From: JBFLYE01 sp040756715 [NCBI: bacterium]
GTDB lineage: Bacteria > UBA9089 > UBA9088
Assembly: GCA_040756715.1 (NCBI GenBank)
Contig: JBFLYE010000204.1
Location: forward strand, 1-11,404
DNA: 11,404 nucleotides
Direction: 5' to 3'
Shown: in pieces, positions 747-11,311 of the stretch
How positions within the stretch are numbered: the first letter of the stretch is position 1
Layout: each line of letters begins with the position of its first letter
The notes under the pieces: generated by a model
What the model saw: only the letters and a program-made list of their open reading frames with translations
The model's database searches: none
Told to the model about the DNA's origin: nothing
Program-made: the position numbers and the translations under genes

Positions 747-1427
747 TTATTTTCTAAGGTAATGAAACAAGGGGTTGATAATGAATGCAACAAGAAGAAG
801 GATTAAGCCTAAAGCAAACGAGTGGGCAAAATTTCCCTTGCTTGTCTCAAGGGCAATGGCGGTTGGAATATTCCTGGTATAGGAAGCTATATTCCCACCC
901 ACCATCATTGAGATTCCCACCTCAGCGAAAACCCTTCCAAATCCACAAATAATCGCAGAGACAAATCCTTGCCTTCCTTCCTCAAAAATCACTGCCATAA
1001 CCTGAAATTTATTAGCACCAAGGGCAATTGCTTCCTTTTTTACCCTTATATCCAATAATGAGATAGATGAAATAAGAAGCCCTGTAATGATTGGAGAGAT
1101 AAGGATTACCTGACCAATGACCATAGCATATGGTGTGTATAAAAGGGAAAGGCATCCCAAAGGGCCATTTCTTGAAAGGAGCGAATAAACAAGCAAGCCA
1201 ACCACAACCGTAGGAAGTGCCATCAGGGTGTTTATAATGGTAATTATTATTTTTTTTCCTATAAATTCGTATTGGGTAATCATAAGGCTTATTGGTAGAG
1301 AGAGTATTGCAGAAATCGTTGTTGCTATGAAAGAGAGCTTAATAGAAAGAAAAACAATCCCAAACAATTCCCTATCTCCCTTTAAGATAAGGTTTATGGA
1401 AGATACAATAGAATCAAGGAGATTCAT
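747..1427 (-). CDS. tupB: tungstate ABC transporter permease TupB
   Basis: 226 residues, hydrophobic throughout with about five or six membrane segments, of normal length for a TupB/WtpB permease. After the first helices comes LPTVVVGLLVYSLLSRNGPLG, a region typical of molybdate/tungstate permeases. The EAA loop, which contacts the ATPase, lies at about 132-155 (KEAIALGANKFQVMAVIFEE). The C-terminal third (GRVFAEVGISMMVGGNIASY, then an AIALETSKG block) is very TupB-like. The ATG at 1427 lies inside the 3' end of tupA (14-base overlap) without a good Shine-Dalgarno, suggesting translational coupling. It should form the membrane channel for the oxyanion delivered by TupA. The cognate ATPase gene (tupC) does not follow: the frame ends at 747, facing the decayed + strand genes. 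Confidence 0.92.
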   Translation of the reverse strand: MNLLDSIVSSINLILKGDRELFGIVFLSIKLSFIATTISAILSLPISLMITQYEFIGKKIIITIINTLMALPTVVVGLLVYSLLSRNGPLGCLSLLYTPYAMVIGQVILISPIITGLLISSISLLDIRVKKEAIALGANKFQVMAVIFEEGRQGFVSAIICGFGRVFAEVGISMMVGGNIASYTRNIPTAIALETSKGNFAHSFALGLILLLVAFIINPLFHYLRK

Positions 1428-2298
1428 ACATTTGATTATATTTGTCCTTTATAGACCTTGCCTTTTCTAAAGGGGTAGTGATATAGGAGGAAATAGGATG
1501 GAAAGGTTCATTTATAGGATTAAAAAGCCTTATTCCATTTACTCTGTATTCACCAATTATCCTTTGGCATTCTTGTTTTATAAGCCAATCTGCAAGCTTT
1601 CTTGCCGATCCATAATTTATGGGATATTTCTTTGGATTAATAATGATCACAGAATATGGATTATAGAGTTCTTTTGGGTCTTCTTTCAAGATAACAAGAG
1701 AAATCTTGTTCTTGTAAGAAAGATATGTTCCCCTATCAGATAAACAATACCCATTTTTTTCATTTGCGATTATCAATGTCTCTCCCATTCCCTGTCCTGT
1801 TTCAAGATACCATTTTCCCTTTGGCTTTATTCCTGTTTTTTCCCATAGCCCTTTTTCCTTTTTATGTGTTCCAGAATCGTCTCCCCTTGAAACAAATATC
1901 TCCTTTTCTTTTGCTATATTTTTTAAGCCTGATATAAGGTCTTTTCCCTTTATTTTTGCGGGATCATCCCTTGGTCCTAACAGAACAAAATCATTCCACA
2001 TAATCTCCTGCCTATTTATTCCAAACCCATCCTTTACAAATTCCTCCTCGTCTTTCTTAGAATGGACAAGAAGAATATCACAATCACCATTTCTTCCCAG
2101 CCTTAAGGCTGCTCCTGTTCCCACCGCAATTACATCCACCTTTATTTTATGGGTTTTCTCAAATTCTTTTAAAAGAACCTTAAGAATACCCGAATTTTCA
2201 AGAGATGTTGTTGTTGCAAGCCTCAATCTTTCCTCTCTTATACATCCTATAAAAAGAAGTAGAATAAAAAATGTACGCATCCTTTTAAGAAAGCTCAT
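1414..2298 (-). CDS. tupA: tungstate-binding lipoprotein TupA
   Basis: Periplasmic-type solute-binding protein of the TupA family, 294 residues from the chosen start. The frame is open further upstream to 2397, but that part overlaps the aminotransferase; the ATG at 2298 gives a proper lipoprotein signal (basic MSFLKRMR, hydrophobic core, FIGC with Cys19) and a weak AGAAG upstream. An ATG at 2280 is possible but leaves a very short n-region. The mature protein opens with LRLATTTSLENSGIL, the family's oxyanion-binding TTTS segment. It is followed by VGTGAALRLGRNGDCDILLV, NDFVLLGPRDDPAKIKG, SRGDDSGTHKKE and ETGQGMGETLIIANEK, all matching the TupA pattern. It should capture tungstate outside the membrane and pass it to TupB. 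It begins 2 bases after the aminotransferase stop and overlaps tupB by 14 bases. Confidence 0.92.
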   Translation of the reverse strand: MSFLKRMRTFFILLLFIGCIREERLRLATTTSLENSGILKVLLKEFEKTHKIKVDVIAVGTGAALRLGRNGDCDILLVHSKKDEEEFVKDGFGINRQEIMWNDFVLLGPRDDPAKIKGKDLISGLKNIAKEKEIFVSRGDDSGTHKKEKGLWEKTGIKPKGKWYLETGQGMGETLIIANEKNGYCLSDRGTYLSYKNKISLVILKEDPKELYNPYSVIIINPKKYPINYGSARKLADWLIKQECQRIIGEYRVNGIRLFNPINEPFHPISSYITTPLEKARSIKDKYNQMYESP

Positions 2299-2300
2299 CG

Positions 2301-3437
2301 CTAAATCTTCTTTAAAAAGCTTGCCATTCTCTCTATTGCCTTTTCTATTTTTTCTACTGAGGTTGCATATGAGCATCTTATAAACCCCCTTCCACAATCA
2401 CCAAAAACATTTCCAGGAACCACAGCAACCTTTTCAGAAAGTAAGAGCTTTTCGGCAAAATCATAGGAAGATAAACCTGTCTTTTCAATGGATGGAAAGG
2501 CATAGAATGCACCATCAGGCATCAAACAAGGCATACCAATGGAATTTAAGCCTGAAACAATCAAATTTCTCCTTCTTAAAAACTCATCCTTTATCTCAAT
2601 AAAGCTATTGCTGTTTAAAGCAGAAAGACCTGCATATTGGCTCATTATGGGCGCACAAAGGATGATATATTGGTGGATTTTACACATCGCAGAAATTATT
2701 TCTTCTGGTCCTAGAGCATAGCCAAGCCTCCAGCCTGTCATCGCATAGCCCTTTGAAAATCCAGAGAGCCAGATGGTTTTTTCTTTTAAAAATGTGCTAA
2801 ATGGTATATGTTCTATTTCATAAGAAAGAAGCCCATATATTTCATCCGAGATAACCATAATATCATTCTCTTTGCAAACATCAGCAATAGAAGAAAGCTC
2901 ATCCTTTGTATATGTCATTCCCGTAGGATTATTGGGATAGCAAAGGATAATTGCCTTTGTTCTGCTACTTAGCCTCTCTTTAATGTCATCGGGTTTTATC
3001 TTAAATTTATTAGAAAATTTTGTAGGAATAACCACAGGCTTTCCGCCTGCTAATAGGACACAGGGCTTATAGGAAACATAAGATGGTTCAGGAATAAGAA
3101 CCTCATCATCTAAATCTAATATAGCCCTAACTGCAAGATCAAGGCCTTCTGAAACACCAACCGTAATCAAAACCTCATTTTTTGGGTCGTAAGAGAGGTT
3201 ATATTTTGAATAGACCATTTGGCTTATCTTTTCCCTTAAAGAAAGAAGACCTGCATTTGATGTATAGGTTGTGAAGCCCTTTTCTATAGAATATAAGGCA
3301 TTTTCTCTGATATGCCAGGGTGTTGGAAAATCTGGTTCTCCTACACCCAATGAGATTACATCAGGCATCCTTGAGATAAGGTCAAAAAATTTTCTTATCC
3401 CAGATGCCGGAATTTCTAATATCCTTTTTGAAAGCAT
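2301..3437 (-). CDS. class I/II PLP-dependent aminotransferase (aspartate/aromatic type)
   Basis: A complete fold-type I aminotransferase of 378 residues. Visible hallmarks: GVGEPDFPTP at 31-40, the YTSNAG substrate/cofactor segment near 58-63, PNNPTG at 168-173, SDEIYG at 197-202 (Asp contacts the pyridine nitrogen), SGFSKGYAMTGWRLGY at 225-240 with Lys229 as the PLP Schiff-base lysine, and RCSYA at 354-358 with Arg354 expected to bind the substrate carboxylate. The sequence groups by eye with the PatA/aromatic/aspartate aminotransferase subfamily; the exact amino donor cannot be read off. It lies 12 bases downstream of the malate/lactate-type dehydrogenase, so an oxaloacetate-aspartate step is a reasonable guess. 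A strong -10 sits 6 bases before its ATG with no Shine-Dalgarno, suggesting a promoter of its own. Confidence 0.9.
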   Translation of the reverse strand: MLSKRILEIPASGIRKFFDLISRMPDVISLGVGEPDFPTPWHIRENALYSIEKGFTTYTSNAGLLSLREKISQMVYSKYNLSYDPKNEVLITVGVSEGLDLAVRAILDLDDEVLIPEPSYVSYKPCVLLAGGKPVVIPTKFSNKFKIKPDDIKERLSSRTKAIILCYPNNPTGMTYTKDELSSIADVCKENDIMVISDEIYGLLSYEIEHIPFSTFLKEKTIWLSGFSKGYAMTGWRLGYALGPEEIISAMCKIHQYIILCAPIMSQYAGLSALNSNSFIEIKDEFLRRRNLIVSGLNSIGMPCLMPDGAFYAFPSIEKTGLSSYDFAEKLLLSEKVAVVPGNVFGDCGRGFIRCSYATSVEKIEKAIERMASFLKKI

Positions 3438-4379: not shown

Positions 4380-5048
4380 ATGAAGAAAGAGAAAAAGGGG
4401 TTGAAGCAAAGGATTTGGGAATGGTTTGAATCCCTGTTTGTAGCCCTTATCATTGCTTTAATCATCAGGTTTTTCATTATCCAGCCATATAGAATTCCAT
4501 CTGGCTCTATGATTCACACATTAGAAATCGGGGATCAGCTATTTGTTATAAGATGTAAATATGGAATAATGATTCCTTTTACTGACAAATGGCTATGTAG
4601 ATGGGCAAAGCCTAAAAGGGGTGATATTGTTGTCTTTAGAAACCCTAAAGACCCTGATCGAGGTGTTCTTTTAAGAATAATCTCGCCTGTAATTTGGGCA
4701 GGAACCATTGGAAAGATTGACCTTAATCCACATAAGGATTATATAAAAAGGGTGCTCGGAACACCAGGGGATAAGGTAATGATTAAAGATAGGCAGGTCT
4801 ATATAAATGAAAAGGCGATAGATGAGCCTTATAAAATACATCAAGATCCATATAGGATATTTGGATATTCAGAGAGAGACAATTGGATTTCTCCTATTGT
4901 AGTTCCAGAGGGAAAATACTTTGTAATGGGAGACAATCGGGATTTTAGCTATGATAGCAGGTTTTGGGGCTATGTTCCCGAAGAGCTAATCGTGGGAAAG
5001 GCTCTGTTTATCCATTGGCCTCCCTGGAGGATAAAATGGCTGAAATGA
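4380..5048 (+). CDS. lepB: signal peptidase I
   Basis: Type I signal peptidase of 222 residues, which cuts signal peptides from exported proteins at the outer face of the cytoplasmic membrane. A basic N-terminus (KKEKKGLKQR) is followed by one membrane anchor at about 17-34. The S26 family boxes are in order: PSGSMIHTL with nucleophile Ser43, RGDIVVF at 80-86, YIKRVLGTPGD at 121-131 with the general-base Lys123, and GDNRDFSYDSRFWG at 184-197. Length and residues indicate an active enzyme of the single-anchor kind. It is the first gene after a promoter abutting its ATG, and its last 13 bases overlap the grpE start. It would serve secreted proteins such as the sorting-domain protein at the window start; the TupA lipoprotein would instead need LspA. 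Confidence 0.95.
   Translation: MKKEKKGLKQRIWEWFESLFVALIIALIIRFFIIQPYRIPSGSMIHTLEIGDQLFVIRCKYGIMIPFTDKWLCRWAKPKRGDIVVFRNPKDPDRGVLLRIISPVIWAGTIGKIDLNPHKDYIKRVLGTPGDKVMIKDRQVYINEKAIDEPYKIHQDPYRIFGYSERDNWISPIVVPEGKYFVMGDNRDFSYDSRFWGYVPEELIVGKALFIHWPPWRIKWLK
5026..5030 (+). promoter_or_regulatory. Shine-Dalgarno sequence deciding the grpE start
   Basis: GGAGG lies inside the end of lepB, five bases before the ATG at 5036. It is the clearest ribosome binding site in the window and selects 5036 over the ATG at 5045 (spacing 14) and over the upstream in-frame ATG at 4964, which lies deep in lepB. Confidence 0.8.
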
Positions 5049-5623
5049 GTCAGGAGTCGGGAGTCAGGGGTCAGGAGTCAAAGGAAAGAATACAGAAGAT
5101 AGTGCGAAAGAAGAAGGTAGAGCTTTTGCAAGAGATTGATGAGAAGGATGCGCAAATAGAGGAATATCTAAATCTGGCAAAAGTGATAAAGGCTGATTTT
5201 GAGAATTATAAAAAGAGACAAGAAGAAGAAAAAAACCAATTAAAAAAGATATACCAAAGAGAAATCTTTATTGAATTCCTTAATGTTTTTGATAACCTTG
5301 AGAGGGCACTAAAAGAGGGAACAGGGAATAGGGAACAGGAAATAGGGAATATAGAAAAAATTATAGATGGGATTGGTCTTGTTAAGAAGGGATTTGAAGA
5401 AATTCTTTCAAAATTTGGGCTTAAAAGGATAGAAACAATTGGACATCCTTTCTCTCCCAAATTTCACACCGCCATTCTCTCTATTCCCATAAAAGAGCAA
5501 AGAGAGGGAATAATCCTTGAGGAGGTTCAATCGGGTTGGAAAGATAATGATTTTTGCCTAAGACCTGCCTCTGTTATAGTTTCCAAAGGATGGGAAGAAG
5601 AAGCTTCGCAAAAAGGGGAATAA
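5036..5623 (+). CDS. grpE: nucleotide exchange factor GrpE
   Basis: GrpE homologue of 195 residues, a normal length. The charged N-terminal two thirds form the expected long helix (about 22-90, containing ADFENYKKRQEEEKNQLKK). The C-terminal beta domain carries the family signature: GHPFSPKFHTAI at 136-147, then VQSGWKDNDFCLRPASVIVS at 164-183. It would release ADP from DnaK in the cytoplasm; dnaK and dnaJ are not in the window. Two short tandem DNA arrays lie inside the gene: one gives SQESGVRGQESK at 5-16, right after the lepB stop codon, and another gives EGTGNREQEIGN at 94-105, in the loop between the helical region and the next helix. Both sit where GrpE tolerates variation. The gene overlaps lepB by 13 bases and the following TPR gene by 34. 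Confidence 0.93.
   Translation: MAEMSQESGVRGQESKERIQKIVRKKKVELLQEIDEKDAQIEEYLNLAKVIKADFENYKKRQEEEKNQLKKIYQREIFIEFLNVFDNLERALKEGTGNREQEIGNIEKIIDGIGLVKKGFEEILSKFGLKRIETIGHPFSPKFHTAILSIPIKEQREGIILEEVQSGWKDNDFCLRPASVIVSKGWEEEASQKGE
5048..5082 (+). repeat. heptanucleotide tandem array (5 x 7), RGTCAGG type, in the grpE 5' end
   Basis: Five consecutive 7-base units: AGTCAGG, AGTCGGG, AGTCAGG, GGTCAGG, AGTCAAA. The first base is also the last base of the lepB stop codon. The array is read in frame as SQESGVRGQESK in GrpE. A near-identical array of the same length and frame occurs at 9464-9498. Confidence 0.85.
5317..5351 (+). repeat. heptanucleotide tandem array (5 x 7), GGGAAYA type, inside grpE
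   Basis: Five 7-base units: GGGAACA, GGGAATA, GGGAACA, GGAAATA, GGGAATA. It is read in frame as part of EGTGNREQEIGN, between two GrpE helices. Period and unit number equal those of the other three arrays, but the unit sequence differs. Confidence 0.8.
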
Positions 5624-6348
5624 AGGTATTCTTTTTGTTTCTCCTTGTTATATTTGGGCTAAGTAGAATAATCGGGACAAAGAATTTAAGTAGAATAGAA
5701 AGCCTTGAAAGAAAACTAAAAGGGGATTCTAATAACTTAAACGTTATCCTTCCCCTTGCTGAGAGCTATTATAAAAAAGCCATTTATCTTGATGATGTAA
5801 AAGAAAGCTTCCCCTATTTTGAGGGTGCTATCTTCTTATATAAAAGGGCATTTAATATAAACAAAGACCCAAAAACTGCATTTTTATTAGGAAAGGCATA
5901 TTTTAATATAGCTAAATATTTAGACAAGGAAGAGAAAAGCAAATTTTACAAAAATGCAGAGGAAAATTTTTTATTTTCTTATCACAAAGGGTTTGTTGAC
6001 AAGGAGCTATTCATCCTGCTTGGTCATTCCTATTTAATAAATGGTTTCTTTGATAAATCAATAGAATTCTATAAAAAAGCCCTTTTGCTTGCTGAGAAAG
6101 ACCCAATTGTTATTTCAAACCTTGCCTTTTGTTATAAGGAAAAGGGATGCCTTGATAAAGCCTTGTCATACCTAAAAATGATAGAGAAGCCTTTGACTAA
6201 AGAAACATTTATAGACTTACACCTTTCGCTTGGTGAGATATATGAGAGAAAGGGCCTTCTTCTCTTGGCAAGGAAGGAATACCTTATTGTTTTAGAAAAA
6301 GATAAAGATAATAAAAAAGCCTTAAGGGCAATAAAAAGGCTTGACTAG
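5590..6348 (+). CDS. membrane-anchored TPR protein (small)
   Basis: A 252-residue protein with a basic N-terminus (MGRRSFAKRG), one hydrophobic segment at about 11-28 (signal anchor or uncleaved signal peptide) and about five tetratricopeptide repeats from residue 54 to the end, for example AFLLGKAYFNIAKYL, LFILLGHSYLINGFFDKSIE and VISNLAFCYKEKGCLDKALS. TPRs are protein-interaction scaffolds; no catalytic domain is present and the partner is unknown. The start is uncertain: the ATG at 5590 overlaps grpE by 34 bases and has a purine run directly against it rather than a spaced Shine-Dalgarno; a TTG at 5635 is a weaker choice. It is the last protein gene before the tRNA and may be functionally linked to the larger TPR protein beyond it. 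Confidence 0.8.
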   Translation: MGRRSFAKRGIKVFFLFLLVIFGLSRIIGTKNLSRIESLERKLKGDSNNLNVILPLAESYYKKAIYLDDVKESFPYFEGAIFLYKRAFNINKDPKTAFLLGKAYFNIAKYLDKEEKSKFYKNAEENFLFSYHKGFVDKELFILLGHSYLINGFFDKSIEFYKKALLLAEKDPIVISNLAFCYKEKGCLDKALSYLKMIEKPLTKETFIDLHLSLGEIYERKGLLLLARKEYLIVLEKDKDNKKALRAIKRLD

Positions 6349-6387
6349 CATCCCAGATAATTGTAATTTATAAATCCTAAATTAGAT

Positions 6388-6461
6388 GGCGGTGTAGCTC
6401 AGCGGCTCAGAGCAGACGGCTCATATCCGTAAGGTCGGTGGTTCAAATCCGCCCACCGCTA
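6388..6461 (+). tRNA. tRNA with CAT anticodon, probably elongator tRNA-Met
   Basis: A complete cloverleaf. The acceptor arm GGCGGTG pairs with CACCGCT (G-T at the first pair), the D arm GCTC pairs with GAGC, the anticodon loop is CTCATAT with CAT at 6422-6424, a five-base variable loop follows, and the T arm is GGTGG/CCGCC with loop TTCAAAT. The discriminator is A at 6461 and no CCA is encoded. The outermost anticodon-stem pair (6415 G with 6431 A) is mismatched. The paired first position argues against an initiator tRNA. A CAT anticodon can also belong to the lysidine-modified tRNA-Ile2; the overall sequence looks more like elongator Met, but this is not certain. Confidence 0.9.
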
Positions 6462-6475
6462 GATAAAATAGCGGT
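6455..6475 (+). repeat. inverted repeat joining the tRNA 3' acceptor strand to its trailer
   Basis: ACCGCTA (6455-6461), the 3' end of the tRNA, is followed after seven bases by its exact reverse complement TAGCGGT (6469-6475), four bases before the next start codon. In the precursor this trailer could compete with the 5' acceptor strand. There is no T-run after it, so it is not a standard intrinsic terminator. Confidence 0.6.
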
Positions 6476-6479
6476 TTAA

Positions 6480-8639
6480 ATGAAGGAACCAGATGATGTC
6501 TTAAGGGAGATAAGGAGGCTTCTTGGTGAGGATATAGAGAAGGTAGAGGAAGAAGAATCTAAAGAAGTAAAAGAAAAACCAAAAATCCAAATTGAAGAAC
6601 CAGAGAAAATAGACAAGCTTCTCTCTGAGATTGAAAAACAAAAAGAGCAGGGTTTTGAAGAAATTCCCAAAGAGCCTCCTTTGGAAATTGTGGAAGAAGA
6701 AAAGCCAATAGAAAAAGAAGAAATTGAGCTTGAAATGCCATCCATTGAGCCACCAGAGGAAGAAGAAATAGCCGAAGAAAAGCCACCAGAAGAAGAGCCT
6801 AAATTTGAGCCCGTTGAACAGGTAGAGATTGAATCTGAAATAGAAAAACCCCTTGAAATATTAGAGCCTCAAGCTCTAATTTCCGAACCTCAAATCCCTA
6901 AACCCGAATCCCAAATCTATGAAGAGCGAGAAGAAATTATTCAGCCCGCATATGAAAATCTAACGTATCCATTAGAGGAGGAATTCAAAGAACCCTCTTT
7001 TAATCTCAAGGAAGAACCAATTGAGGAAGAAGAAAGACCTGTTGAAGAAGAAAAAATTTTAGAGGAGAAAACGATTACAGAGCCAAGCAAGGACCAGGAG
7101 GAAATGAAGGTCCTCCTTAAGGAAAAGAAGGGGGTTTCACCTCCAAAAAGACCTATTAAAATAAATAAAAAATTTGTTTTTATTCCCCTTTTTATCCTTG
7201 GAATAATTGGAATAATCACAGGATATGCCTTTCTTTTCTTACTCCCCAATAAAGAGCTAAAAATTGCTATCTCTAATATAGAAAAACAAAGAATAAAAGA
7301 GGGAGAAAAAGGCTTTGATAAATGGATAAAATTTATCTTCTTAAAAAACCAAAAGATTTTTTTCTTTCATCAGCTTGGCGAGGCATATCTTTCGATAAAC
7401 GATTATAAAAGGGCAGGCTCTATATTTTGGAAGGCTTATGAATTAGACCCAAGCAATCAAAATACGCACAATTATATCCTTTCCTCTACTTTAAAAACAG
7501 AGGGATGGGAAAAGGCAAAGGAAAAAGCAGAGAAAATTCTTTTGAAAGACCCAAGGAGCATTCCCGCACACCTTATTTTATCAAAATACTTAAGTAGAAG
7601 GGGAGAGATAAAAGAGGCAATCTCCTCTCTTGAGAAAGGCTTAAAAGTATCGCCTTCTAATATTTCCCTTATCTCATTCCTTCAAGTTTTATACTTTCAA
7701 GACAAGCAATACAAGAAGCTAATAAGCCTGCACAGATTTTTAATTGACCATCTAAAAAATAACCCACTTAATCCCGATATTGTAGTAAAGGCAGCTGGAT
7801 ATTTTATAGAAAAAGGAGAGCTTAATATAGGGAAACCACCTTTAGAAGAAATATTGAAGGTATATCCAAAAAATATAGGGGCAAGATACCTCCTTTCCCT
7901 TGCTTTACTAAAGGAAGGAAATAAAGAAAAAGCAAAGGAAGGGCTTTCCTCCCTTCTTAAGGATGAAGGTTATCCTCTTGCTTATAACACGCTTGGAGAA
8001 ATATTAAGGGATGAAGGAAAATACATAGATGCCTTATCAGCCTTTTCGCTTGCTATTCTTAAAGACCCTTATTTTGGAAAGGCACATTATAACCTTGCAG
8101 ATACTGCATTCTACAACCTTAATGACTATTCAACAAGCATTAAAGGATACGAGGATGCAAGAGCGAATGGATATATTACCAGCCAATTACCATATAACCT
8201 CGGTGTTTCCTATTACATAAAGGGAAATTATAAAAAGGCAAGGGATTGCTTTGAAATCCTTTCTAAAGATAAAACAATCATCTATAATATTGCTTGTGCT
8301 GATGCCAGGCTTAAAAATTTTAAGGAGGCAAAAGAGGGCTTTGAAGCTGCAGAATCCATCATCAAAGAGGGTTTAAGGGAGAAAATATCAGCAAAAGAGG
8401 AAAAGGGGCTTTACTCCTTTCTTTCTAATATCTATAACAACTTTGGGCTTATTGCTGAATTTTCTAATCTTTCAAGTGAAGCACAGGAAAGGTATTGGGA
8501 TGCAATAAACACAGCAAAGCTTGCTGGTTTTGAGCACAAGGAGGCATTTTTAAATCTTACAAATTTCTTCAATGGAAAACTAAACTCCCTCTCTTTACTT
8601 TCAGATAAATTGGATAAAGAATATATTGTAGCAAAATGA
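6480..8639 (+). CDS. large membrane-anchored TPR protein with Glu-rich N-terminal region
   Basis: 719 residues in three parts. Residues 1-~215 are low-complexity and very acidic (Glu/Pro-rich), likely disordered and cytoplasmic. A basic patch (KRPIKINKK, 223-231) precedes a single membrane helix at about 232-256. The remaining ~460 residues are mostly tetratricopeptide repeats, probably on the outer side; clear units include FHQLGEAYLSINDYKRAGSI, AYNTLGEILRDEGKYIDALS and PYNLGVSYYIKGNYKKARDC. No enzyme domain is seen. It is probably a scaffold, and the topology is inferred from charge. The ATG at 6480 has no Shine-Dalgarno. The stop overlaps the formate dehydrogenase ATG (ATGA), so the two are probably translated in a coupled way. 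A heptamer array lies in the acidic part. Long open frames on the opposite strand here are a by-product of the GAA-rich sequence. Confidence 0.85.
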   Translation: MKEPDDVLREIRRLLGEDIEKVEEEESKEVKEKPKIQIEEPEKIDKLLSEIEKQKEQGFEEIPKEPPLEIVEEEKPIEKEEIELEMPSIEPPEEEEIAEEKPPEEEPKFEPVEQVEIESEIEKPLEILEPQALISEPQIPKPESQIYEEREEIIQPAYENLTYPLEEEFKEPSFNLKEEPIEEEERPVEEEKILEEKTITEPSKDQEEMKVLLKEKKGVSPPKRPIKINKKFVFIPLFILGIIGIITGYAFLFLLPNKELKIAISNIEKQRIKEGEKGFDKWIKFIFLKNQKIFFFHQLGEAYLSINDYKRAGSIFWKAYELDPSNQNTHNYILSSTLKTEGWEKAKEKAEKILLKDPRSIPAHLILSKYLSRRGEIKEAISSLEKGLKVSPSNISLISFLQVLYFQDKQYKKLISLHRFLIDHLKNNPLNPDIVVKAAGYFIEKGELNIGKPPLEEILKVYPKNIGARYLLSLALLKEGNKEKAKEGLSSLLKDEGYPLAYNTLGEILRDEGKYIDALSAFSLAILKDPYFGKAHYNLADTAFYNLNDYSTSIKGYEDARANGYITSQLPYNLGVSYYIKGNYKKARDCFEILSKDKTIIYNIACADARLKNFKEAKEGFEAAESIIKEGLREKISAKEEKGLYSFLSNIYNNFGLIAEFSNLSSEAQERYWDAINTAKLAGFEHKEAFLNLTNFFNGKLNSLSLLSDKLDKEYIVAK
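6884..6918 (+). repeat. heptanucleotide tandem array (5 x 7), CNAAWCC type, inside the large TPR gene
   Basis: Five 7-base units: CGAACCT, CAAATCC, CTAAACC, CGAATCC, CAAATCT, with a possible degenerate sixth unit just before (6877-6883). It is read in frame as part of SEPQIPKPESQIY in the acidic, probably disordered N-terminal region. It is more degenerate than the other arrays but has the same period and length. Confidence 0.65.
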
Positions 8640-11311
8640 TTGAATTGGTAATTGATGGAAAAAGGATAAAGACAGAACAAGGAAAGAACATTCTTGAGGT
8701 TTGTCTTGATGAAAATATTGATCTTCCAAACCTTTGCTATGATTCCCGTCTTAAAAGCTTTGGTGCCTGTAGGCTATGCCTGGTTGAGGTAGAGCGAGCA
8801 AAGGGCTTCCTTCCAGCCTGCACAACAAGCGCAATTGAAGGAATGGTTGTTAAGACAAACACAGAGAGGCTTTTAGAAATAAGAAAGGAGCTCCTTGAGC
8901 TTATCCTCTCAGACCACCCTGATGACTGCCTTGTTTGTGAAAAGAACGGGGATTGTAAGCTTCAAGAATATGCCTATCAATATGGTGTTAGAAGGGAGAA
9001 ATATTCAGAGAAATTAAGCATCCTAAAGGAAAACAGCCCATATCGGACAAACCCATTTATTGAGAGGGATACGGACAAATGTATTCTATGTGGAAGGTGT
9101 GTAAGAATCTGCGATGAGCTTATGGGAAGGAATGTTTTGGATTTTGCAAATAGGGGGTTTTCTTCTTTAATCACCACAGGCTTGAATAAGCCCCTTGAGG
9201 AGAGCAATTGTGAATTTTGTGGTCAATGTATCTCTACCTGCCCGGTTGGTGCTTTATCTTCAAAGATAAAAAAGAAAGGAAGACATTGGGAGACAAAGAA
9301 AACAAAGACCATCTGTCCATATTGTGGCTGTGGATGTCCGATAATATTAGAGACAAAAGGCAATACAATAATTGATGTTTCATCAAACAACAATCTCTGC
9401 ATAAAGGGAAGGTTTGGGTTTGATTTTGTAAACCACAAGGAGAGGCTGAAAAAACCCTTGATAAGTCAGGGGTCAGGGGTCAGGGGTCAGGGGTCAAAAT
9501 TTAAGGAGGTGGAATGGGGGGAGGCATTGGATTTTGTAGCAAAGAGGTTTTTAAAGATAAAAGAAAAATATGGGGCAGATGCTATGGGTGGGTTTGCTTC
9601 GGCAAAGGTAACCAATGAGGAAAATTTCTTGTTTCAAAAATTTATGAGGGCTGTTTTGCAGACAAACAATGTTGACCATTGTGCAAGGCTATGCCATGCT
9701 TCAACCATGGCTGGTTTAGCAAAATCTTTTGGCTCGGCTGCTATGACAAACACAATCAATGATATAGCTTGCTCTGATTGCATCATTGTCATTGGCTCAA
9801 ATACAACAGAAGCACACCCAATTGTAGGGCTTAAAATAAAGGAGGCGATTAGAGAGGGTGCAAAGCTCATTGTTATAGACCCAAGAAAGATTGAGCTAGT
9901 AGAGCTAGCAAATATATGGTTAAGGCAGAAGCCAGGCACAGATGTTTGCTTGATAAATTGCTTAATGAATGTCATTTTAAAGGAAGGTCTTTATAAGAAG
10001 GATTTTATAAATGAAAGGACGAGTGGATTTAAAGACCTTTGCAAGGCAATTGAAAAATATACCTTAGAATATGGAGAAGAAATTACAGGTTGCAAAAAGG
10101 AACTTATTATTGAAGCAGCAAGGATTTATGGAAAGGCAGAAAGGGCATCAATTATCTATTCAATGGGCATAACCCAGCATACAACAGGTGTGGACAATGT
10201 CCTTTCTTTGGCAAATCTAGTAATGATGACGGGAAATATTGGAAGGGAAGGAACGGGATTAAACCCTTTAAGGGGTCAAAACAATGTCCAGGGTGCTTGT
10301 GATATGGGGTGCTTACCAGACCTTTTACCAGGATACCAAAAAATAGAAGATGAGAAAATAAGGGAAAACTTTGAAAAGGCTTGGAATGTAAAGATTCCAA
10401 CCGAACAGGGTTTAACCCTAACAGAAATGATTGCATCTATTGATATAAAATGCCTCTATATTATGGGAGAAAACCCCCTTTTGTCTGATCCTGATATAAA
10501 CCGTGTAAAAGAGGCTTTTTCAAAAAAGGAATTCATTGTTGTTGCTGATATATTCCTCACAGAGACAGCAGAGCTTGCCGATGTTGTTTTGCCATCTTGT
10601 TCATTTGCCGAAAAGGATGGAACATTTACAAATACAGAGAGGCGTATTCAATTGCTAAATAAGGCTATAGAGCCACCCGGTGAGGCAAAAGCAGATTGGG
10701 AGATAATCCAGATGCTCTCAAATAAAATGGGATACAATATGGAATACAAAGATTCAGGGGAAATTATGAAGGAAATTGCAAGCCTTACACCAATCTATGA
10801 AGGAATATCTCATAAAAGGCTTAAAAATGAAAGTTTGCATTGGCCCTGCCTTAATGTCAATCACCCGGGAACGCCCATTTTGCATCGGGAAAAATTTACA
10901 CGGGGATTAGGATTATTTTGCCCAGTAGAATATAAACCAGCGGCTGAAGAGCCAGATATAGCATACCCATTTATCCTTACCACAGGAAGGATAAGGGAGC
11001 ATTACCATACAGGAACCCTCTCAAGGAGAAGTCTTGCTTTAGATAATTACATAAAAGAGGGATTTGCTGAAATAAACCCAAAAGATGCTAGCAAACTTGG
11101 AATTTTAGATGGAGAAATGGTGAAGGTTTCATCAAGAAGGGGAGAGATAGAGATAAAGGCAAGGATAACCGACATAGTTCCATCGGGTGTTGTCTTTATT
11201 CCATTTCACTTCAGGGAATCACCTGTAAATATATTGACCAATCCATCCCTTGACCCAATAGCAAAGATACCCGAATTTAAGGTATCCGCTGTTAGGATTG
11301 AAGCTCTTTAA
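8636..11311 (+). CDS. fdhA: formate dehydrogenase catalytic subunit (Mo/W-bisPGD, Cys type) with N-terminal Fe-S domains
   Basis: 891 residues. Order: a 2Fe-2S ferredoxin domain (Cys34, 45, 48, 62); a His/Cys 4Fe-4S site (His94, Cys98, 101, 107); two 4Fe-4S clusters (CILCGRCVRIC at 149-159, CEFCGQCISTCPVG at 192-205); and the molybdopterin oxidoreductase body with its own 4Fe-4S motif (Cys227, 230, 234, 255). Cys353 in DHCARLCHASTMAGLAKSFG takes the place of the selenocysteine of many formate dehydrogenases and is followed by the essential His354. Formate-dehydrogenase-like blocks follow (GITQHTTGVDNVLSLANL, PLRGQNNVQGACDMG), then the C-terminal dinucleotide-binding domain (LTTGRIREHYHTGT, PEFKVSAVRI). 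Length and layout resemble the tungsten NADP-dependent clostridial FdhA. It should oxidise formate or reduce CO2 and pass electrons to partner subunits not seen here. A heptamer array adds SQGSGVRGQGSK (277-288). ATGA overlap with the TPR gene; no Shine-Dalgarno. Confidence 0.92.
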   Translation: MIELVIDGKRIKTEQGKNILEVCLDENIDLPNLCYDSRLKSFGACRLCLVEVERAKGFLPACTTSAIEGMVVKTNTERLLEIRKELLELILSDHPDDCLVCEKNGDCKLQEYAYQYGVRREKYSEKLSILKENSPYRTNPFIERDTDKCILCGRCVRICDELMGRNVLDFANRGFSSLITTGLNKPLEESNCEFCGQCISTCPVGALSSKIKKKGRHWETKKTKTICPYCGCGCPIILETKGNTIIDVSSNNNLCIKGRFGFDFVNHKERLKKPLISQGSGVRGQGSKFKEVEWGEALDFVAKRFLKIKEKYGADAMGGFASAKVTNEENFLFQKFMRAVLQTNNVDHCARLCHASTMAGLAKSFGSAAMTNTINDIACSDCIIVIGSNTTEAHPIVGLKIKEAIREGAKLIVIDPRKIELVELANIWLRQKPGTDVCLINCLMNVILKEGLYKKDFINERTSGFKDLCKAIEKYTLEYGEEITGCKKELIIEAARIYGKAERASIIYSMGITQHTTGVDNVLSLANLVMMTGNIGREGTGLNPLRGQNNVQGACDMGCLPDLLPGYQKIEDEKIRENFEKAWNVKIPTEQGLTLTEMIASIDIKCLYIMGENPLLSDPDINRVKEAFSKKEFIVVADIFLTETAELADVVLPSCSFAEKDGTFTNTERRIQLLNKAIEPPGEAKADWEIIQMLSNKMGYNMEYKDSGEIMKEIASLTPIYEGISHKRLKNESLHWPCLNVNHPGTPILHREKFTRGLGLFCPVEYKPAAEEPDIAYPFILTTGRIREHYHTGTLSRRSLALDNYIKEGFAEINPKDASKLGILDGEMVKVSSRRGEIEIKARITDIVPSGVVFIPFHFRESPVNILTNPSLDPIAKIPEFKVSAVRIEAL
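9464..9498 (+). repeat. heptanucleotide tandem array (5 x 7), RGTCAGG type, inside fdhA
   Basis: Units AGTCAGG, then GGTCAGG three times, then GGTCAAA. It is read in frame as SQGSGVRGQGSK at residues 277-288, between PLI and the FKEVEWGEALDFVA block, a surface loop where related enzymes vary in length. It begins and ends like the array at 5048-5082, has the same length and uses the same reading frame. Confidence 0.88.

What the first reader, a model, noticed from the sequence alone, without database searches (positions are those of the whole stretch)
5048..9498. Four tandem arrays with the same architecture (five 7-base units, 35 bases) inside three protein genes
Arrays at 5048-5082, 5317-5351, 6884-6918 and 9464-9498 all have period 7 and five units although three unit sequences are used (RGTCAGG, GGGAAYA, CNAAWCC). 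All lie in coding sequence, stay in frame and sit in loops or disordered parts. A period of 7 is not a codon multiple, so this is a DNA-level process (slippage, a mobile mini-repeat or a targeted insertion) tolerated by the proteins, not protein repeat evolution. A fixed unit number across different motifs is unexpected for simple slippage and suggests a defined element of about 35 bases.
Basis: seen in the sequence. Interest (0 to 1): 0.75.

Follow-up and report, generated by a model that had tools for sequence, protein, structure and literature searches.

The report
Seven-base repeat arrays inside genes
This bacterium's genes, including essential ones, carry many short runs of a seven-letter DNA unit repeated about five times; a close relative often has a run at the same spot but with a different unit, which points to a DNA-level process that the proteins merely tolerate.

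Summary
The four places named are the only separate 35-base stretches of the window with 19 or more of 28 seven-base self-matches; shuffles average 0.1. The third is degenerate. It is genome-wide: in 725 kb (47% of the genome) 77 period-7 arrays against 0 in one shuffle, other periods 0-7 each. Half are copies of one dispersed repeat; the other 45 (score 14 or more) use 24 units, and 36 lie in open frames by a crude gene caller, some in tRNA synthetases and UvrD. Length is peaked: 32 of 45 are 30-37 bases.

Against sites without an array the differences I could read are +9, +21 (three sites), +24 (an 8-base unit), +27 (two) and +33: all multiples of three, not one fixed insert. In 11 of 27 sister pairs both species have arrays of different unit at the same place. 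I favour seven-base slippage filtered by frame and stop codons, with regrowth and homogenisation changing the unit; copying between loci is the main rival. Bacterial heptamers are known; unit swapping inside housekeeping genes looks new. Why seven is open.

The parts
5047..5082 (+). Array 1, unit RGTCAGG (about 5 units), codons for the N-terminus of GrpE (...SQESGVRGQESK...); begins in the stop codon of the overlapping signal peptidase gene
   Evidence: TRF; 22 of 28 lag-7 matches; the sister has an unrelated sequence here, 3 bases longer
5316..5351 (+). Array 2, unit GGGAAYA (about 5 units, C/T alternating in part), inside GrpE between ...NVFDNLERAL and IIDGIGLVKKG...
   Evidence: TRF; 23 of 28; +21 bases against the sister, which holds about 2.5 units
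6884..6918 (+). Array 3, degenerate unit CNAAWCC, in the acidic N-terminal region of a TPR protein
   Evidence: 19 of 28 lag-7 matches; not reported by TRF at score 30 or more; same length and nearly the same sequence in the sister
9464..9498 (+). Array 4, unit GTCAGGG (about 5 units, perfect over 32 bases), at the N-terminal edge of the molybdopterin domain of a formate-dehydrogenase/NuoG-like protein
   Evidence: TRF; 25 of 28; +21 bases (7 residues) locally against the sister and six further phylum members
5036..5623 (+). grpE, host of arrays 1 and 2
   Evidence: PF01025, E 1.2e-35
6480..8639 (+). TPR protein gene, host of array 3
   Evidence: TPR families
8636..11311 (+). Molybdopterin oxidoreductase gene, host of array 4
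   Evidence: PF00384, E 1.3e-85, and ferredoxin-type domains

Best explanation
The arrays are bacterial heptanucleotide tandem repeats made by strand slippage whose step in this lineage is seven bases (sometimes eight). A short seed grows by whole units. Inside a gene only net changes divisible by three survive; a gain of three units (21 bases, or 24 for an 8-base unit) on a seed of roughly two units gives about 33-35 bases, i.e. five units. Units with a stop on the coding strand are removed, which fixes the orientation. Collapse to a seed, regrowth and homogenisation of variants change the unit while place, frame and often length stay. Shown: the period, the length peak, differences divisible by three, the orientation filter, unit differences at matching sites. 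Inferred: slippage itself and the collapse-and-regrow cycle. Not explained: why seven, the +27 and +33 gains, and the sharing of units between loci.
For: Period 7 is nearly exclusive in the genome sample and dominant in the sister sample. Of exact lag-7 runs of 17 or more, 22 of 33 (own 16 of 22, sister 6 of 11) lie at 23-28, about 21 above the chance tail of 5-10. Three-unit gains: +21 in GrpE and the oxidoreductase, +21 net at L079:7099 (the sister site there is not cleanly empty), +24 for an 8-base array. The sister's GrpE site holds a 2.5-unit seed-like stretch. Orientation 20:0. In the TMEM260-like family one site carries GGCTTAA, GACTCCA, GGGTCAA or AAATTCA arrays in one register, some mixed. 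11 of 27 sister pairs have arrays of different unit, 7 of 27 the same unit or one step away. No reverse transcriptase domain was detected in the own genome. neuO is a published coding heptamer translated in full only when the repeat number is divisible by three (PMC13001214, passages read).
Against: A clean empty site shows +33 (sister L332:3010 against own L107), and two others +27, none a multiple of seven; a site with different flanking sequence shows +9. Five arrays outside genes have lengths 24, 26, 33, 34 and 34, so the peak near five units is not purely a frame effect. Identical units recur at unrelated loci more often than GC-matched chance seeds (35 pairs against a mean of 8.4, maximum 22 in 2,000 draws; against unmatched seeds the mean is 10.7 but the maximum 39). 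Runs of 11-22 also occur, so the two groups are not fully separate. Two relatives (G002, G008) have a 13-residue oxidoreductase loop of the same length as here without the GTCAGGG peptide; their DNA was not examined. No population data show slippage. Only two genomes were compared base by base.
Confidence: 0.5

Rival explanations
1. Arrays are copied between loci: a whole short array is inserted or overwritten from another array elsewhere (ectopic conversion or template switching), so a small library of units circulates, and in genes only inserts divisible by three survive.
For: A clean whole-array gain of 33 bases without a visible seed, using the common GAGTCRG unit (sister L332:3010). Identical units at unrelated loci, 35 pairs against 8.4 with GC matching. 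14 of 25 sister arrays have a unit also found in the own sample, against a mean of 3.8 and a maximum of 11 in 1,000 draws (orthologous sites are included, which inflates this). Swaps of 4-5 of 7 bases at one site with no intermediate seen, e.g. TTGTCTG against CTTCTTA at equal length.
Against: Against unmatched seeds the sharing reached 39 in the highest of 2,000 draws. Within one gene family the units form small steps with mixed arrays. Several gains are exactly three units. Whether the 33-base case is a gain in the sister or a loss here was not settled.
Confidence: 0.27
2. One defined mobile element or targeted insertion of about 35 bases.
For: Narrow length peak, 32 of 45 at 30-37 bases; one clean +33 site.
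Against: The other seven readable differences are +9 to +27. No common ends or common unit. Units of 7 and 8 bases both occur.
Confidence: 0.09
3. Selection for DNA or RNA structure such as G-quadruplexes maintains the arrays.
For: Array 4 holds four G runs; Rehm et al. 2015 discuss this for Xanthomonas and Nostoc (PMC4692102, passages and one section read).
Against: Only 8 of 45 arrays have a unit with GGG on either strand, and swaps change the motif at the same site.
Confidence: 0.04
4. Protein-level selection for a repeated peptide.
For: At the TMEM260-like site, basic residues and serines recur across different units (read by eye).
Against: The period is not a codon multiple; host proteins are unrelated; most oxidoreductase homologues do without the insert.
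Confidence: 0.05

Closest known systems
Heptanucleotide long simple sequence repeats of bacteria (Mrazek and co-workers, as summarised in PMC4679880, passages read)
   Same: [quoted passage not shown] slippage with a seven-base polymerase contact was proposed.
   Different: That summary says repeats inside genes are most often multiples of three. Here non-triplet heptamers lie mostly inside genes.
GGGAATC repeats of Xanthomonas and GGGGAYT repeats of Nostoc (Rehm et al. 2015, PMC4692102, passages and one section read)
   Same: Heptamers dispersed over the genome with a preferred unit number (four).
   Different: A G-rich unit family, 89-93% intergenic in the two Xanthomonas; here 24 units in the sample, mostly coding, about five copies.
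TAACTGA repeats of Beggiatoaceae (PMC4679880, passages read)
   Same: Heptamer direct repeats, two to six copies.
   Different: A single favoured sequence, mainly intergenic; related heptamers rare.
trnL(UAA) intron P6b repeats of Nostoc (Kaasalainen et al. 2015, PMC4476775, passages read)
   Same: One seven-base motif replaces another at one site.
   Different: One RNA locus with a pairing constraint; here many protein genes.
neuO heptamer array (PMC13001214, passages read)
   Same: Coding heptamer AAGACTC; full translation only when the repeat number is divisible by three.
   Different: Phase-variable, 3 to 53 units, one gene; here housekeeping genes, about five units.
Heptanucleotide repeats of Haemophilus influenzae (PMC2651432, passages read)
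   Same: Some lie inside genes, e.g. 14 units in an hmw1a reading frame.
   Different: Few loci, tied to phase variation of surface proteins.

Membership tests
Bacterial heptanucleotide simple sequence repeats | Tandem units of seven bases in excess of chance | tested here: met
   77 against 0 in one shuffle of 725 kb; 34 of the 77 remain after removing the dispersed repeat
Bacterial heptanucleotide simple sequence repeats | Unit number changes by whole units between relatives | tested here: inconclusive
   Three units at four of eight readable sites; +9, +27, +27 and +33 at the others
Bacterial heptanucleotide simple sequence repeats | Mutation by slippage in living cells | not testable with these tools
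   No reads or cultures
Phase-variable contingency locus (neuO type) | Unit number puts the gene out of frame in part of the population | tested here: inconclusive
   36 of 45 arrays lie in open frames by my gene caller, but one assembly cannot show switching
Mobile element or miniature transposon | Constant sequence and constant ends | tested here: not met
   Units and ends differ
Mobile element or miniature transposon | Empty sites lacking exactly the whole element | tested here: inconclusive
   One clean case of 33 bases; seven others differ by 9 to 27
G-quadruplex repeat (Rehm type) | Unit with a run of three or more G | tested here: not met
   8 of 45 arrays have it

The most novel reading that the evidence does not exclude
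The genome has an active heptamer-writing process that inserts or rewrites arrays in place, replacing all units of an array by another unit from a shared set while frame and often length are kept, so that dozens of genes, essential ones included, carry a continually rewritten ten- to twelve-residue cassette.
Probability: 0.18. Interest if true: 0.85.

Novelty: new variant of a known kind. Interest (0 to 1): 0.52.

Why it matters
It gives a natural data set for an old open question: why seven bases is the favoured repeat unit in bacteria. Matching sites with different units, 8-base controls and a frame filter allow rates of gain, loss and unit turnover to be measured. It also shows that widely conserved proteins (GrpE, tRNA synthetases, UvrD) can take short arbitrary inserts, and warns that such insertions are poor phylogenetic markers.

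Tried and rejected
Single 35-base element: disfavoured, not excluded (see rivals). Mismatch-repair loss as the cause: the MutS_I domain is undetected in the own genome and in eight relatives (I count the sister among them; its only hit is 21 bits in a 150-aa frame), but G010, with the most GTCAGGR hits, has a clear MutS, so there is no simple link. Reverse-transcriptase template: no RVT_1 match in the own genome (96% complete), though nine of the 19 genomes, the sister included, have one. G-quadruplex: 8 of 45 units. Purine-rich slippage preference: arrays are not more purine-skewed than chance seeds. GGGAAYA as a genome-wide family: with up to 2 mismatches only the GrpE array matches. My first GrpE alignment used the wrong strand for several relatives and was discarded, then redone for the sister alone.

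Rows dropped or misjudged: 45 of 90 arrays at score 14 or more were set aside as one dispersed repeat. Masking of that repeat was incomplete (54 runs of length 11, probably from it). My gene caller labelled the two GrpE arrays 'inter' and 'edge' and L079:6675 'inter', although GrpE is coding and L079:6675 looks coding by eye. For the oxidoreductase the flank-based net is +36 because of a second length change nearby; locally it is +21. For L079:7099 one search gives +23 and searches give +21. Pair sites with large or unclear length differences (L044, L077, L103:4329; sister L357, L360, L361) were not used as empty sites. The sister-to-own table (64 arrays, 48 paired) holds duplicate loci and paralogues, so I give no tally from it. 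Structure prediction was not run. That unit swapping in coding heptamers is not in print rests only on the searches and 66 of an open-access library.
Full report
WHAT IS THERE. Within each 35-base stretch, 22, 23, 19 and 25 of 28 positions equal the base seven further on. These four are the only separate places in the 11.4 kb window that reach 19; 50 Markov-1 shuffles average 0.1 and never exceed 1. TRF finds three of them. The one at 6884-6918 is degenerate. Hosts are GrpE (two arrays), a TPR protein and a molybdopterin oxidoreductase with ferredoxin-type domains.

IT IS GENOME-WIDE. The window is contig C204 of a 1.55 Mb, 218-contig, 96% complete genome. I read 101 contigs, three of them cut at 20 kb (725,077 bases, 34.6% GC). 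At score 16 or more there are 77 period-7 arrays and none in one Markov-1 shuffle; other periods from 4 to 21 give 0 to 7 each. At score 14 or more there are 90. Of these, 45 belong to one dispersed, mostly intergenic repeat that itself holds a heptamer-like stretch and often lies at contig ends; I set them aside, which leaves 34 of the 77. The other 45 have 24 distinct units. My crude gene caller puts 36 in open frames, 6 outside and 3 at edges, and it wrongly leaves out the two GrpE arrays. The 17 host proteins scanned include class I tRNA synthetases (L065, L081), a class II tRNA synthetase with an editing domain (L120), UvrD (L037), FlgA, FlgH and FlgI (L092), a BadF-type activase (L107), NfeD (L088) and TMEM260-like proteins (L033, L103); one had no Pfam match (L079). 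By eye, some arrays encode hydrophilic peptides and others lie in hydrophobic or signal-peptide-like stretches.

LENGTH AND FRAME. 32 of 45 arrays are 30-37 bases, 7 are 24-29, 4 are 38-49 and 2 are 50 or more. Exact lag-7 runs show a falling chance tail (5 to 10); of the runs of 17 or more, 16 of 22 here and 6 of 11 in the sister lie at 23-28, with some runs in between. Of 36 coding arrays, 20 have a unit that is stop-free only in the sense orientation, 0 only in the antisense, 15 in both and 1 in neither. Five arrays outside genes have lengths 24, 26, 33, 34 and 34, so frame alone does not set the length.

COMPARISON WITH THE SISTER. A same-genus genome (G001) also shows period-7 dominance: 18 arrays of period 7, 5 of period 8, at most 2 of any other period from 4 to 21, in 365 kb. 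In GrpE the second array is 21 bases longer than in the sister, which holds about 2.5 units; the first lies where the sister has an unrelated stretch 3 bases longer. In the oxidoreductase the local gain is 21 bases, six residues against thirteen; six further phylum members (G013, G015, G012, G009, G010, G005) also have six. Of 14 other phylum homologues that align there, 11 have 6-8 residues, G002 and G008 have 13 and G004 has 18; G011 did not align. The TPR array has the same length in both species. Other readable differences: +21 net (L079:7099, sister site not cleanly empty), +27 (L079:6675), +27 (L037), +33 (sister L332:3010, a clean empty site here), +9 (sister L330:745, flanking stretch different), and +24 for an 8-base array in the TMEM260-like family. 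All eight are multiples of three; four equal three units; one fits a whole-array insert.

UNIT SWAPPING. Of 41 own arrays at score 16 or more (34 of period 7, 7 of period 8), 27, all of period 7, could be paired with the sister. Seven have the same unit or one step away, 11 a different unit (2 to 5 of 7 bases different, or an 8-base unit), one is unclear, and 8 have no array above the cut-off in the sister; one of these 8 (L033) looks degenerate rather than absent. The clearest case is L060, TTGTCTG against CTTCTTA at the same place with no net length difference. In the TMEM260-like family, site A is empty in two members and carries GAGCGGAA or GAGCACCA arrays in others, both exactly 24 bases longer; site B carries GGCTTAA, GACTCCA, GGGTCAA or AAATTCA arrays in one register, some mixed.

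SHARED UNITS. Identical units at different loci: 35 pairs. Chance seeds matched for GC give a mean of 8.4 (maximum 22 in 2,000 draws); unmatched seeds give 10.7 (maximum 39). The excess is clear under one null and weaker under the other. Together with the +33 site it is the main result that slippage from random seeds does not explain.

OTHER LINEAGES. GTCAGGR arrays (20-base pattern, up to 1 mismatch) occur in 11 of 41 genomes searched, all within the same phylum (11 of 19), none of 22 outside. In 80 loci found with the oxidoreductase (1.35 Mb; titles mostly Nitrospirae, Thermodesulfovibrio- and Desulfo- names), 12 period-7 arrays are found and at most 4 of any other period. Three of the 12 lie in the gene carrying the oxidoreductase match; the loci were chosen by that gene, so the sample is not neutral, and L195 has the same loop as the phylum member G004. 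In G010 the listed pattern hits include facing pairs about 60 bases apart in at least seven contigs; the one read in full, between genes by eye, folds into a long hairpin.

MECHANISM. I favour seven-base slippage. In genes, changes divisible by three survive; three units on a seed of about two gives five. Regrowth from a collapsed seed and homogenisation change the unit. The frame rule has a published precedent in neuO (PMC13001214, passages read). A polymerase contact of seven bases was proposed earlier (reported in PMC4679880, passages read). The rival, copying of whole arrays between loci, gains from the +33 site and the shared units. MutS loss and reverse transcription are not supported as causes.

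KNOWN OR NEW. Heptamer repeats are a known bacterial class (PMC4692102, PMC4679880, PMC2651432: passages read). Replacement of one seven-base motif by another at one site is known from the Nostoc trnL intron (PMC4476775, passages read). What I did not find in the eight searches named is many units, mostly inside housekeeping genes, swapped at matching sites. I therefore call it a new variant of a known kind.

Noticed in passing
45 places in the own-genome sample, e.g. L060:12811-12842, L083:1487-1518: A dispersed, mostly intergenic repeat, alike over about 130 bases in many copies, holds a heptamer-like stretch of 32 bases and often lies at contig ends; perhaps a miniature transposon that breaks the assembly.
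   Followed up: partly
G010 (L190 about 1427-1530): In a distant phylum member GTCAGGR hits include facing pairs about 60 bases apart; the one read folds into a long hairpin, resembling the inverted repeats described for Xanthomonas.
   Followed up: partly
L210, oxidoreductase loop (Nitrospirae CG02): The loop that carries array 4 here holds a peptide (PPTPPLAKGGEGGFERGG) that I recall from a widespread dispersed repeat: perhaps an insertion-tolerant site used repeatedly.
   Followed up: no
G000-G004, G006-G008, G011: No convincing MutS_I domain in nine of 19 phylum members, all outside families f3, f7 and f8.
   Followed up: partly
L036:2480-2515 and L317: Some arrays hold AAGACTC units, the heptamer of the E. 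coli neuO array.
   Followed up: no
sister G001, contigs C9, C78, C119, C130, C158, C165, C172, C178: The TMEM260-like family is multi-copy in the sister, with arrays at more than one site per copy in those aligned.
   Followed up: partly
window 747-2397: By eye an ABC permease and a substrate-binding protein resembling tungstate/molybdate uptake lie in the same contig as the molybdopterin enzyme (names recalled, not tested).
   Followed up: no
window 6389-6461: By eye a tRNA gene lies between the two TPR-type genes (no tRNA search was run).
   Followed up: no
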